Source: Rubripirellula reticaptiva (GTDB lineage: Bacteria; Planctomycetota; Planctomycetia; Pirellulales; Pirellulaceae). From it: a DNA stretch of 64,000 nucleotides. The stretch spans positions 1,612,001-1,676,000 of the forward strand of contig NZ_SJPX01000001.1 of assembly GCF_007860175.1 (NCBI RefSeq). The letters are read 5' to 3'. The notes beneath the pieces were generated by a model. That model did no database searches. It saw only the letters and a list, made by a program, of their open reading frames with translations, and was not told the DNA's origin. Positions within the stretch are counted from its first letter, which is position 1; the number at the start of each line of letters is the position of its first letter. Both the position numbers and the translations under genes were made by a program. Shown here in pieces: positions 46,362 to 50,209 of this stretch.

Positions 46362-47930
46362 TTAGGCAGCGCTGCGTGCTGACGAAATTGCTTCCGCCGA
46401 GTCGGCGATCCAGCGGCGAACATCAGATAGTTTTGGCGCGTCGGCGCCGCGTAGATATCGGCGGCCGCTAGAGGTCATCGCAAACTGGGCGACTTCTTGA
46501 TGAAGCTCGCCTGCTTTGCAAACCGCGACGGCACTGGCCGAATTGTACTGAGCACCGGCAAGCATTTGGCATTCACGTGCCAGCAGTTCTGGGATCTCGC
46601 ACATTAGTTTGGCTTGCCACTGCCACTGAGTCACGGTTTCGGTCGTGATCCAGTAGGTCAACATTTCGGCCGCCATCTTGGCTGCTGATTCATCTAAGAA
46701 TTCGCCGACTGTGTGGATGCCAACCGACGCAAAACGCTGAGCCGTTTTGGGACCGATCGACGGAGCGTTGACGAGTGGATCTTGCCTCGATAGTCGGCAT
46801 CGATCATTTACCGGCTGGTGTGTGACTGGTGTATCGACGCTGCGTGGTACGAATGGAATGGTCGCGGGATAATCTTGGTGCGAAGGTTCCAAGTCTGCTT
46901 CGCTGGTCGTTGCGACGACAATCTCGTTGGTTTCGTTGGCGGCTTGTATAGCAGCGGCCTGAATTTTTTTGGCAGCCAGGCGACGTGCACGTCGGCTTTC
47001 TCGGGAAGCCATTTCGGTTCGGTAGACATCTATCACTCGGTGAACAATGTCCACATCGGCGGGCAAGTTCTTTTGCAACGTGCCGGTTCGGCGAAACTCG
47101 CTGATCAGGCGTCCGACGGCGTCTTGTTCGATTCGGTTCTCAATTCGCTTGAGCCAAGCTCGCGCCGGAGTGCGAATGACCGCGAGTGCGGTGCTTGCCG
47201 ATAGAGATGCTTTGGCGATTGGTTGTCCCATTGCTGACTCGGCATCACGCGCGGCGCGTTCAAGCACTCTTGCCCAGCCGGTGATGGCCAAACCAAAGAG
47301 TTCCGAAAGTGCGCGCTGAGCAACCAGCCCAAGTCCGTCGGGCGGATGAGCTCGGCCGCGTTCAAGATCGTACGTATCCAGCAACGGAAAGTAACTTCGG
47401 TTGGCAAATTTGGCGCCGTGCAAAATTGCCTCGCCGAGCCAGCCGATATTGTTCGATAAGTTGAAGACCGTTCGAGCTGGGTCGTCTCGCCACACGGTCA
47501 GAATTGATTCATACGATCGCGTGACGCTCCATTCAATCGGTCGATGCAGGACCTTTTCACGTTCGCATTGCTGCGTGTGCAGGGGCATCATCGGATCGGT
47601 GAAGTAGTGGCTCAGTACGCCAGCCGCGTGGGCTGCGTCACTGTAGCGGCCCGCACGTAAGTGATTCTGAAGTTTGTCATACCACAGGTGGGCAACGCGC
47701 GGCGCACCACCCCAGTAACCGTCGGTGACATGGACCACATGGTTTTGAAAGTCACGAAACCGCGTGTCCGGATCCTTTGCGCCTCGCAGGTATCGATCGT
47801 GGTGTCGAAGCAGCACGCGTGCGAGTCGTTGGCCAGCGTCAGTTTGCACCAACGGTAGCGCATCGATTGCAAAAAAGTGATGGGTGCTGCGACAATGGGC
47901 GGCGCGTAGGATCAAAAACAACGGGTTCAT
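46362..47930 (-). CDS. Zinc-dependent phospholipase C-like protein fused to a helix-hairpin-helix domain
   Basis: A 522-residue protein. The N-terminal ~230 residues resemble the zinc-dependent phospholipase C fold: HHFFAIDAL near residue 15, HHDRYLRGAKDPDTRF, FQNHVVHVTDG and HAAGVLSHYFTDPMMPLHT supply the His/Asp metal ligands. The C-terminal part has an HhH/DUF4332 segment (NAPSIGPKTAQRFASVGIHT, ~395-420). No signal peptide is evident, which is odd for a phospholipase. The ATG at 47930 starts the fold; upstream in-frame codons overlap the neighbouring gene. Preceded 13 bp upstream by a small partner gene. Confidence 0.75.
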   Translation of the reverse strand: MNPLFLILRAAHCRSTHHFFAIDALPLVQTDAGQRLARVLLRHHDRYLRGAKDPDTRFRDFQNHVVHVTDGYWGGAPRVAHLWYDKLQNHLRAGRYSDAAHAAGVLSHYFTDPMMPLHTQQCEREKVLHRPIEWSVTRSYESILTVWRDDPARTVFNLSNNIGWLGEAILHGAKFANRSYFPLLDTYDLERGRAHPPDGLGLVAQRALSELFGLAITGWARVLERAARDAESAMGQPIAKASLSASTALAVIRTPARAWLKRIENRIEQDAVGRLISEFRRTGTLQKNLPADVDIVHRVIDVYRTEMASRESRRARRLAAKKIQAAAIQAANETNEIVVATTSEADLEPSHQDYPATIPFVPRSVDTPVTHQPVNDRCRLSRQDPLVNAPSIGPKTAQRFASVGIHTVGEFLDESAAKMAAEMLTYWITTETVTQWQWQAKLMCEIPELLARECQMLAGAQYNSASAVAVCKAGELHQEVAQFAMTSSGRRYLRGADAPKLSDVRRWIADSAEAISSARSAA

Positions 47931-47943
47931 GACACCACCCTCG

Positions 47944-48240
47944 TTAGGCGGCTTGGGATTGGCTCGAAATCGCAGCATCCACATCGACGCGATAGGCCGC
48001 GGCTTGTCGAGACAATCTCGCCCGCAGCGACTCGTCGCCTCTTAGTACCGACGACGCGGTCGTCATCCGTTGTTGGAAGACGTCAAACGTCAGCGGCCGA
48101 AAGGTGGCGTGACCTGTTGGCGGCGCGGCCGCACCATAGGCAGCCGTTCGGCGCCACTTCCAGTCCGCGCGAGCGATTCCTAGGTACACCGCGTAGAGTT
48201 GCGTTACGCTTAATTTCGAAAGATCTTGTAGTCCGGTCAT
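47944..48240 (-). CDS. Small conserved-looking helical protein upstream of the PLC-like gene
   Basis: A 98-residue soluble protein (GLQDLSKLSVTQLYAVYLG..., RPLTFDVFQQRMTTASSVL) with no signal peptide or membrane helix and even amino-acid composition. The ATG at 48240 is preferred; longer in-frame starts give Arg-rich tails. Its stop lies 13 bp before the phospholipase-like gene, suggesting an operon. Family unknown. Confidence 0.55.
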   Translation of the reverse strand: MTGLQDLSKLSVTQLYAVYLGIARADWKWRRTAAYGAAAPPTGHATFRPLTFDVFQQRMTTASSVLRGDESLRARLSRQAAAYRVDVDAAISSQSQAA

Positions 48241-48387
48241 CACCACGGTTGCATCCCCACAGCACAAACGAATTAGGGTTTGCGACGGACGCAACCATCG
48301 CGGCCGTCTGCGTGGCAAGTGTGCCGATCCGCGGGCGTCGGTGGCAAGAGAGATTTTTTAATGCTAGGTGAGCCAAACGTGTCGGTA

Positions 48388-49053
48388 TTAACGCGGCTTC
48401 GAGCGAACGATCTCTCGAGTCCGTGACACGAGCGAGAAAGTTTCTTCGGGGCGTGGATCCGGCGCGACGCTGGTGAAGTAGTCTTGGTCGATGCCCAAAA
48501 TCTTGCGACGTTTCTGAGAAACGCCAGGGTCCGAGTCCAGGAAGCTTTCCGCCATTTCAAAATCGCGGTCCCACAAGATCGCAATCGACAGAAGGTCGAC
48601 GACATCTTCGAAAGCCGTCAAGTCGATTGAGTCGCGACCTGGCAAATCGACCGATACCGATTCTGGCATTGATTGATAGGCGGCCAAAGTGAGCGATCGC
48701 CATTCCGTTTGCGGCGGAACCGAATCGCCGAACAAGTCAATCTCGATCGCAATCTGGTCACGCACTTCAACAAAAATAGCCGCCACGGTGGCTTCGGCTA
48801 AAGCCGACAGTTGCATTGGCGAATCGGTTTCGGTCAACAAATGCTCAGCCACTTCGTGTAGCAAACCGATTCGCTGACAGACCGTCAATTGATCAAACAC
48901 ATCGATTCCCGAATCGCAATCCGGGATCACTTCGTCAACGCAGTCAACGTCAACATGAACCAGCAACGCATCGATCATCGTGTCGATTGCGGCGCCGACC
49001 AACGCGCTTTCAGCGCCTCGCAAGGTTCGATCACCTCGGCTGGTATGCCACAT
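48388..49053 (-). CDS. Hypothetical acidic cytoplasmic protein
   Basis: A 221-residue, strongly acidic soluble protein with Asp/Glu-rich helices and no signal, membrane segment or motif that I recognise. The ATG at 49053 has AAGGGA upstream at a normal distance and is chosen over longer frames that add Arg-rich residues. It is the third gene of a minus-strand run with the small helical protein and the phospholipase-like gene (147-bp gap). No function proposed. Confidence 0.65.
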   Translation of the reverse strand: MWHTSRGDRTLRGAESALVGAAIDTMIDALLVHVDVDCVDEVIPDCDSGIDVFDQLTVCQRIGLLHEVAEHLLTETDSPMQLSALAEATVAAIFVEVRDQIAIEIDLFGDSVPPQTEWRSLTLAAYQSMPESVSVDLPGRDSIDLTAFEDVVDLLSIAILWDRDFEMAESFLDSDPGVSQKRRKILGIDQDYFTSVAPDPRPEETFSLVSRTREIVRSKPR

Positions 49054-49219
49054 AAAATTCCCTTTTCCCCGAACATGCAGTTCGCGTCGAAAATATCGAC
49101 GCGTCCACAATAATGCCTGCAACCCTTTAGAGGCCGACATCATAATCGAGGAATCGCGACGTGGTACGCCGCGGCGAAAATTTCATTTTTTTCAGTCGTA
49201 AGTCGTTCGCTAGAAACAA

Positions 49220-50209
49220 CTACGCAGCGCGTGTGATCGGATTCGCGGTGCCCGAATCGTGCAATTCGCGGCGTGCCGGACGAACGCGAGGCCGGGTTAC
49301 GGATTCTTCTTCGTTGCGGCTGATATGGACATCCAACTGTGGGAACGGAATTGAAATGCCGGCGCCGTCAAGTTGACGCTTGACTTGCGCTGTGAGCGTT
49401 TCGTGAATTGGCCAGTAATTCTTTGAAGCAACCCAGGCACGCACTTTCCAGTTGACACTGCTAGCACCAAGATCGCTGAGGATGACTTGCGCGCCACGCC
49501 CTTCGCCTTGAACAACGGCTTCGGAAATTTGTGAGACAGCGGCTTCCAATGCGGCGCGAGTTTGGTCGAGGTCGGCGTTGTAATCGACGCCCACTAGTAC
49601 TTCGACTCGGCGATGTTGGTGATACGAAATGTTTTCGATCGTGCCGCCTGAAATCGAACTATTCGGAACGATGATGCGGCGGTTGTCGGGCGTATCAAGC
49701 GTCGTGGTGAACAAGTCGATCTCGTTGACCTTTCCCATCACGCCGCCAGCATTGACGACGTCGCCAACTTTGAACGGGCGAAACACCAACATCAAGACAC
49801 CACAAGCAAAGTTGCTAAGGGTTCCCTGAAATGCCAAGCCTACGGCAAAGCCGGCGGCGGCCAACATCGCGGCCAATCCGCCAAGCGGTGCACCCAGTTT
49901 TGACAGTACCGCACCAGTAACGCCAAACATGACGCAATAGAAAACCATCTTGCCGATGAATCGGCCAAGTGTTTCGTCGACGCGGCGGCAAACGGGACGG
50001 CTTACCAAACCCGAAATGTATTTTGCAGCGAGGTAGCCAAGAAAAATCACCCCTAATCCGATGGCGGCCCAACCGAGGGCGGGTGCCAGGTGGGTCGCGG
50101 CGTAATCCGTCGCCCCTGCGACATCGCCACTACTTAGCTTGTTCCACGCTTCTTCCGTTGCGGTCAAGATCTCGGGATTCCGGGCAGGCATTTCGGTTGT
50201 TTCAGCCAC
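49220..50209 (-). CDS. mscS: MscS-family small-conductance mechanosensitive channel
   Basis: A 329-residue inner-membrane channel that opens on membrane tension to release solutes after osmotic downshock. Three membrane segments (~residues 45-68, 84-105, 112-145) end in the pore helix GLAAMLAAAGFAVGLAFQG; the MscS beta-domain signature FRPFKVGDVV and IIVPNSSI follow, then the alpha/beta vestibule. Length is close to E. coli MscS (286) with a ~30-residue N-terminal addition and an Arg-rich C-terminal tail. Stands alone, with ~185 bp upstream. Confidence 0.93.
   Translation of the reverse strand: MAETTEMPARNPEILTATEEAWNKLSSGDVAGATDYAATHLAPALGWAAIGLGVIFLGYLAAKYISGLVSRPVCRRVDETLGRFIGKMVFYCVMFGVTGAVLSKLGAPLGGLAAMLAAAGFAVGLAFQGTLSNFACGVLMLVFRPFKVGDVVNAGGVMGKVNEIDLFTTTLDTPDNRRIIVPNSSISGGTIENISYHQHRRVEVLVGVDYNADLDQTRAALEAAVSQISEAVVQGEGRGAQVILSDLGASSVNWKVRAWVASKNYWPIHETLTAQVKRQLDGAGISIPFPQLDVHISRNEEESVTRPRVRPARRELHDSGTANPITRAA

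What the first reader, a model, noticed from the sequence alone, without database searches (positions are those of the whole stretch)
46362..48240. Zinc phospholipase C-like fold fused to an HhH domain, with a coupled 98-residue protein
Seen: PLC-type metal ligands in the N-terminal half, a DUF4332/HhH-like segment near the C-terminus, no signal peptide, and a tightly preceding small gene. Known: zinc PLCs are secreted; HhH segments bind DNA. Inference: a cytoplasmic hydrolase acting near DNA, possibly a nuclease or defence-like effector with a partner. Speculative.
Basis: inference. Interest (0 to 1): 0.5.

Follow-up and report, generated by a model that had tools for sequence, protein, structure and literature searches.

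The report
Cytoplasmic phospholipase-like enzyme with degron-like tail
This bacterial gene encodes an uncharacterised enzyme that looks like secreted zinc phospholipases but seems to stay inside the cell, carries a helical module resembling those of DNA-repair proteins, and ends in a conserved tag that probably marks it for rapid destruction.

Summary
Window 46362-47930(-) encodes 522 residues: a zinc-PLC-fold domain, a helical arm, a disordered linker and a DUF4332/HhH module. The PLC metal-ligand positions are all kept in 72 of 74 aligned relatives (two have Asp for the last Glu). The model (pLDDT 91) matches Bacillus PLC (Z 19.7) better than S1/P1 nucleases (Z at most 14.4). No aligned member has a signal-like N-terminus. 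The small gene is real: 11 of 83 PLC loci carry it directly upstream, in several different neighbourhoods. Defence is not supported: no PADLOC hit, housekeeping neighbours. The DNA idea is weakened: the HhH module is missing or degenerate in several lineages and net acidic. New here: 70 of 86 family members end in (Ala/Ser)-Ala, against 3 of 121 unrelated neighbouring ORFs; the tail survives loss of the HhH module and also ends the partner protein (11 of 11). That is the ClpXP degron pattern. Best reading: a cytoplasmic, probably short-lived PLC-type phosphodiesterase of Planctomycetia and Alphaproteobacteria; substrate unknown, phospholipid modestly favoured over nucleic acid. New variant of a known kind.

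The parts
46362..47930 (-). PLC-like/DUF4332 protein, 522 aa, start ATG at 47930
   Evidence: conserved start in relatives
47226..47930 (-). residues 1-235: zinc-PLC-fold domain with ligand positions H17, D55, H64/H67, H108, D112, H118, H129, E133
   Evidence: residues 9-233 match 1ah7 at Z 19.7
46926..47225 (-). residues 236-335: two long helices, net charge +9 here, not part of the PLC match; P255, E278, G283 almost invariant
46800..46919 (-). residues 338-377: predicted disordered linker, variable in length among relatives
   Evidence: pLDDT under 50
46398..46796 (-). residues 379-511: DUF4332, first half HhH fold with hairpin PSIGPKTA
   Evidence: residues 380-447 match RAD51C N-terminal domain at Z 8.9 and the polymerase iota HhH at Z 7.7
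46365..46373 (-). last three residues (Ser-Ala-Ala), conserved C-terminal tail of the (Ala/Ser)-Ala type
47944..48246 (-). small partner gene: 100 aa from the conserved GTG, 98 aa from ATG 48240; all-helical; also ends in Ala-Ala

Best explanation
A cytoplasmic zinc phosphodiesterase of the phospholipase C branch. Shown by computation: PLC fold with the full side-chain ligand set, no signal peptide, HhH (DUF4332) module on a flexible linker, conserved (Ala/Ser)-Ala carboxy terminus, and in some Planctomycetes a 100-residue helical partner with the same kind of terminus encoded just upstream. Inferred: zinc ions activate water to cut a phosphodiester, as in Bacillus PLC; the substrate is most likely the head group of a membrane phospholipid reached from the inside (phospholipid turnover or remodelling); the HhH module is an accessory tether to DNA or to a partner protein; ClpXP recognises the terminal Ala-Ala, so that enzyme and partner are short-lived and a potentially membrane-damaging enzyme is kept low until needed.
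For: Ligands invariant in 74 of 74 except E133D in 2. Pfam Zn_dep_PLPC in 73 of 74; no S1-P1 nuclease family among the 12 families listed. Fold Z 19.7 to 1ah7 over 213 residues, 3.1 A; S1/P1-type nucleases 13.2-14.4. Cytoplasmic start. Tail: 70 of 86 end in [AS]A against 3 of 121 and 1 of 29 unrelated ORFs and at most 2 per set in the neighbouring gene families except rpoD; kept as Ala-Ala in 6 of 8 members without DUF4332, the other two ending IA and VA; partner protein 11 of 11. The genome has clpX with the GYVG and RKH loops and a tmRNA tag ending FALAA. [quoted passage not shown] Intracellular PLC activity exists: PlcP (passages, PMC3972451). Strain JC639, whose name is on the record of L089, has phosphatidylcholine as a major lipid (passages, PMC12254169; same strain assumed from the name).
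Against: No activity, lipid or half-life was measured. PLC and S1/P1 nucleases share fold and ligands, so the substrate class is not settled. DUF4332 is present in 65 of 74, which fits DNA better than lipid. Genomic neighbours are neither lipid nor phosphate-starvation genes. The N-terminal Trp ligand of secreted PLC (recalled) has no counterpart. The tail is not universal: 16 of 86 do not end in [AS]A, and RpoD in four loci also ends in AA, so the motif alone does not prove a degron. L022, outside the 74, has Gln at the H118 position.
Confidence: 0.42

Rival explanations
1. A DNA- or RNA-directed nuclease of the PLC/S1-P1 superfamily: the HhH module holds the enzyme on nucleic acid and the zinc site cuts phosphodiesters; the protein is a short-lived repair factor, like the large DUF4332 protein that shares both module and tail.
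For: HhH fold of residues 380-447; DUF4332 in 65 of 74; a 1,471-residue protein with a GSGKT motif and two DUF4332 copies in the same genome ends in Arg-Ala-Ala, and 14 of 14 further large DUF4332 proteins end in Ala-Ala; RecN, an SMC-like repair protein, is degraded by ClpXP through its C terminus (passages, PMC10714372).
Against: Sequence and fold nearer PLC than S1/P1; last ligand is Glu in 72 of 74, as in PLC (recalled; nucleases have Asp); HhH half net acidic; HhH module absent in 8 of 83 rows and without the hairpin Gly in 6 more; no DNA-repair neighbours seen.
Confidence: 0.3
2. The enzyme acts on a soluble phosphodiester or phosphomonoester (nucleotide, cyclic dinucleotide, glycerophosphodiester) and the HhH module is a protein-protein adaptor.
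For: Cytoplasmic; the superfamily is versatile: SmNuc1 of the S1/P1 type is listed with a product of c-di-GMP cleavage (entry title 9emg); HhH half acidic.
Against: No direct evidence; no signalling genes among the neighbours annotated.
Confidence: 0.2
3. A toxin or defence effector with the small protein as its immunity or partner.
For: Small gene tightly upstream, overlapping in L069; Het-C toxins are thought to share this fold (section 27 of PMC3482391).
Against: PADLOC none; housekeeping synteny; partner found in only 11 of 83 loci, so most enzymes lack it; an orphan partner exists in G313 without the enzyme.
Confidence: 0.05

Closest known systems
Zinc-dependent phospholipase C (PF00882; Bacillus cereus PLC, 1ah7)
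   Same: All-helical fold, ligand order and the spacings H-x3-D-x5-H and H-x3-E (Bacillus numbering recalled)
   Different: No signal peptide, no counterpart of the N-terminal Trp ligand, extra helical arm, linker and DUF4332, Ala-Ala terminus
S1/P1-type nucleases, including SmNuc1
   Same: Same fold superfamily and metal-site plan
   Different: Lower fold score (Z 13.2-14.4 against 19.7), no Pfam match to them, Glu instead of Asp at the last ligand (recalled)
DUF4332 (PF14229) proteins
   Same: The C-terminal module, over the family's cut-off
   Different: Fused to a PLC-fold enzyme; no such fusion turned up in the papers searched; DUF4332 proteins sampled outside the class do not end in Ala-Ala
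Intracellular phospholipase C PlcP of rhizobia
   Same: Would do the same job: cut phospholipid head groups from inside
   Different: Recalled to be a calcineurin-like metallophosphoesterase, another fold; homology not tested
Het-C domain
   Same: Proposed in print to share the PLC / S1-P1 fold (PMC3482391 section 27)
   Different: Toxin and incompatibility context; no Het-C match among the families listed here
ClpXP substrates with an Ala-Ala terminus (ssrA tag, RecN)
   Same: Ala-Ala conserved at the very end
   Different: Degradation not measured here

Membership tests
Zinc-dependent phospholipase C (PF00882) | Profile match | tested here: met
   24.2 bits, under the 26.8 cut-off, for the lone protein; 27.0 bits, over it, in the genome search; 73 of 74 members at E 0.01 or better
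Zinc-dependent phospholipase C (PF00882) | Eight side-chain metal ligands (mapping to Bacillus PLC numbers recalled) | tested here: met
   H17, D55, H64/H67, H108, D112, H118, H129 in 74 of 74; E133 in 72 of 74, Asp in 2
Zinc-dependent phospholipase C (PF00882) | Fold | tested here: met
   Z 19.7, 213 residues, 3.1 A to 1ah7
Zinc-dependent phospholipase C (PF00882) | Secreted, with mature N-terminal Trp as ligand (recalled) | tested here: not met
   No signal-like segment in 74 of 74; starts Met-Asn-Pro-Leu. So it is a PLC-fold relative, not a classical secreted PLC
Zinc-dependent phospholipase C (PF00882) | Phospholipid hydrolysis | not testable with these tools
   needs an assay
S1/P1 nuclease | Closest fold and profile | tested here: inconclusive
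   Same superfamily, Z at most 14.4; no profile match among the families listed
DUF4332 / HhH | Profile above cut-off and HhH fold | tested here: met
   49.9 bits against 23.2; HhH fold at Z 6-9
DUF4332 / HhH | DNA binding | not testable with these tools
   net charge of residues 379-447 is -1 here, median -2 over 66 rows, which does not favour it
ClpXP Ala-Ala degron substrate | Conserved C-terminal Ala-Ala | tested here: met
   70 of 86 in the wider form [AS]A, controls
ClpXP Ala-Ala degron substrate | Degradation by ClpXP | not testable with these tools
   clpX with GYVG and RKH loops is present
Anti-phage defence system | Match to a known defence protein or a defence neighbourhood | tested here: not met
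   PADLOC none for both proteins; housekeeping neighbours

The most novel reading that the evidence does not exclude
A proteolysis-controlled set of proteins in Planctomycetes: the PLC-fold enzyme, its small partner and the large two-DUF4332 GSGKT protein all carry the same terminal Ala-Ala tag, retained even when the HhH module is lost. The enzyme would be a cytoplasmic PLC-fold phosphodiesterase working at DNA, held there by HhH, switched on by stabilisation and removed by ClpXP.
Probability: 0.15. Interest if true: 0.75.

Novelty: new variant of a known kind. Interest (0 to 1): 0.48.

Why it matters
PLC-fold zinc enzymes are known as secreted lipases and nucleases. A family that is built to stay in the cytoplasm, keeps the complete metal site across two phyla and carries a terminal tag of the degron type raises a simple testable question: what phosphodiester does it cut inside the cell, and why must the enzyme be short-lived? 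The tail also gives a sequence-only way to look for proteolysis-controlled proteins in Planctomycetes, where little is known about regulated degradation (recalled).

Tried and rejected
Signal peptide from another start: rejected. Assembly or frame artefact: rejected, the fused architecture recurs in 65 of 74 relatives. Defence system: rejected (neighbours). Partner strictly dependent on the enzyme: rejected, G313 has the partner but no enzyme match. Partner homology: no Pfam, NCBIfam or PADLOC match and no solved-structure sequence match; Foldseek gave 0 matches at E 0.001 and the second look at most Z 3.2, first to DinB-like folds (fold name recalled), which is noise level. Tail as a general property of DUF4332: rejected, 10 of 12 DUF4332 proteins sampled in the phylum lack it and the two with it are from the same class. 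Tail as local composition: rejected by neighbouring families and unrelated ORFs.

Rows dropped: weak matches set aside are G024 (38% over 40 residues), G456 (stop inside) and G464 (E 6.7e-4). The 74-row alignment is the window plus 73 of the 80 named loci; seven (L104, L123, L125, L128, L130, L134, L135) were left out as near-copies or cut by a contig end. In the tail count L125 was left out and 13 identical rows removed (99 to 86). My Alphaproteobacteria set of 27 was made from record titles and includes L119, titled only 'bacterium'.

Papers: DUF4332 gave one paper, unrelated by its title (listing only); 'zinc dependent phospholipase C' with 'helix-hairpin-helix' none; PF00882 none; Planctomycetes with zinc-dependent phospholipase C one, of which I saw passages and section 27. 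A search on C-terminal alanine with CtrA found none. The first alignment was wrong because minus-strand loci had not been turned; one search replaced it. A hairpin count by pattern was too strict; the column count replaced it (G in 61 of the 67 rows with a letter there, one of them a misaligned row without the domain).

Full report
What is there. The window's minus strand has two genes 13 nt apart: a small gene (47944-48240, 98 aa) and a 522-aa gene (46362-47930). The longer protein has a zinc-PLC-like N-terminal domain and a C-terminal DUF4332, which contains an HhH motif. A model made from 74 sequences has mean pLDDT 91.2, with only residues 338-377 below 50. Residues 9-233 superpose on Bacillus cereus PLC (1ah7, Z 19.7, 3.1 A, 213 residues); other PLC-type structures follow at 16.9-19.5 and S1/P1-type nucleases at 13.2-14.4; residues 380-447 match the RAD51C N-terminal domain (Z 8.9 and 8.7) and the HhH of polymerase iota (Z 7.7). 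Z values of 7 to 9 for a small helical domain are not decisive alone, but the profile match to DUF4332 is independent.

Metal site and location. In 74 aligned sequences H17, D55, H64, H67, H108, D112, H118 and H129 never vary and E133 is Asp in two. The spacings H-x3-D-x5-H and H-x3-E equal those recalled for Bacillus PLC. One relative outside this set, L022, has Gln at the H118 position. The conserved start lies about 16 residues before H17; many relatives have a stop within a few codons upstream, and no member of the 74 has a signal-like hydrophobic stretch. So the family begins near the point at which secreted PLCs begin after signal removal (recalled), and is cytoplasmic as far as sequence can tell.

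Distribution. Of 40 genomes (the window's own and its relatives) 26 have some match and 20 a match to the PLC domain; the other six match DUF4332 only. Of 296 genomes of the order 49 have a match, one of them weak; of 392 of the phylum 22, of which 16 are strong. In named genomes 186 relatives were found and 80 kept: Rhodopirellula, Rubripirellula, Roseimaritima and other Planctomycetes, and Alphaproteobacteria such as Hyphomicrobium, Methyloligella, Rhodomicrobium and Henriciella. In ten genomes holding such loci, nearly all alphaproteobacterial by title, there is one DUF4332 match in eight and a second, short one in two.

Neighbourhood. In the genus the order is kept: radical SAM, MscS, a 251-aa protein without Pfam match, the PLC gene, glutamate dehydrogenase, DtxR-type repressor. 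In many Hyphomicrobium-type loci it lies between a DUF4159 gene with its neighbours and thiC. These neighbours do not indicate a pathway, and nothing looks like a defence island.

The small partner. A profile of the window protein and its two nearest relatives, run on the upstream 900 nt of 83 PLC loci, found 11 members (the three seeds and eight more at E 2.1e-14 or better; the next best E was 0.25). Outer contexts differ: MscS and the 251-aa gene in the window group, rpoD upstream in L063, L064, L067 and L082, others in L065, L081 and L087. In L069 the two genes overlap as TGATG. Two of the enzymes with a partner (L082, L087) lack DUF4332, so the partner goes with the PLC part. The partner is modelled as four helices (pLDDT 84), has no Pfam match, and has invariant residues such as Y18, D28, R32, H46 and F49-R50-P51-L52. 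It is not strictly tied to the enzyme: of five strong partner genes in 296 genomes, four lie beside a PLC gene and one, in G313, is in a genome with no PLC match.

The tail. Of 86 non-identical family members 77 end in Ala and 70 in (Ala/Ser)-Ala. Of ORFs of 200 aa or more in the same and related loci, 25 of 363 (Planctomycetes and others) and 11 of 107 (Alphaproteobacteria) do so; of those not belonging to a shared gene family, 3 of 121 and 1 of 29. Among the neighbouring gene families with ten or more members the counts are 2 of 17, 0 of 15, 1 of 14, 0 of 14, 0 of 14, 1 of 12, 0 of 12 and 0 of 12; the one family that shares the ending is rpoD, 4 of 4. All 11 partner proteins end in Ala-Ala or Ser-Ala. 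The eight enzymes without DUF4332 all end in Ala, six in Ala-Ala. The parsimony count on a quick tree of 83 rows is six changes of DUF4332 state and four of partner state, so the tail has outlived repeated domain loss. The large DUF4332 protein of this genome, with a GSGKT motif and no ATPase family in Pfam, also ends in Arg-Ala-Ala; 14 of 14 further large DUF4332 proteins in relatives end in Ala-Ala, while of six short DUF4332 proteins five end in Ala and two in Ala-Ala. In a wider sample of 12 DUF4332 proteins of the phylum only the two from the same class end in Ala-Ala. The genome's own tmRNA tag is ANESFALAA and its ClpX has the GYVG and RKH loops. Terminal Ala-Ala is reported as the main ClpXP determinant of the ssrA tag (PMC7652416, passages) and RecN is degraded through signals in its C terminus (PMC10714372, passages). 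A degron is therefore the simplest reading of the tail, but this is inference.

Substrate. For lipid: closer to PLC in sequence and fold; Glu as last ligand; HhH dispensable and acidic; phosphatidylcholine is a major lipid of strain JC639 (PMC12254169, passages), whose name is on the record of L089; and intracellular PLC activity exists in rhizobia (PMC3972451, passages). For nucleic acid: DUF4332 in 65 of 74, cytoplasmic place, module and tail shared with a large GSGKT protein. I favour lipid modestly (about 0.4 to 0.3), with soluble phosphoesters at 0.2.

Verdict. None of the four phrase searches on this family returned a description of it, in a library of open papers only.

Noticed in passing
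L172:3245-7660 (-), that is G000:C4 about 698744-703159: 1,471-residue protein with a GSGKT motif near its start and two DUF4332 copies, ending in Arg-Ala-Ala; 14 of 14 further large DUF4332 proteins in relatives end in Ala-Ala.
   Followed up: partly
L169:7495-7947 (G313): Orphan copy of the small partner gene in a genome without a PLC-domain match; also ends in Ala-Ala.
   Followed up: partly
L063, L064, L067, L082 (rpoD upstream of the PLC pair): RpoD-type sigma factor ends in Leu-Asn-Pro-Ala-Ala in 4 of 4.
   Followed up: no
window 48388-49143 (-): 251-aa protein without Pfam match, kept beside the PLC gene in 15 loci and ending in Pro-Arg in all 15.
   Followed up: no
upstream of the small gene in L063, L064, L065, L067, L069, L082: Conserved CAAGGA(T/C)GCT a few bases before the start, looking like an extended ribosome-binding site.
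   Followed up: no
window 49220-50209 (-): MscS-type channel ends in Arg-Ala-Ala here, but only 1 of the 14 members of its family (this one) ends in [AS]A.
   Followed up: yes
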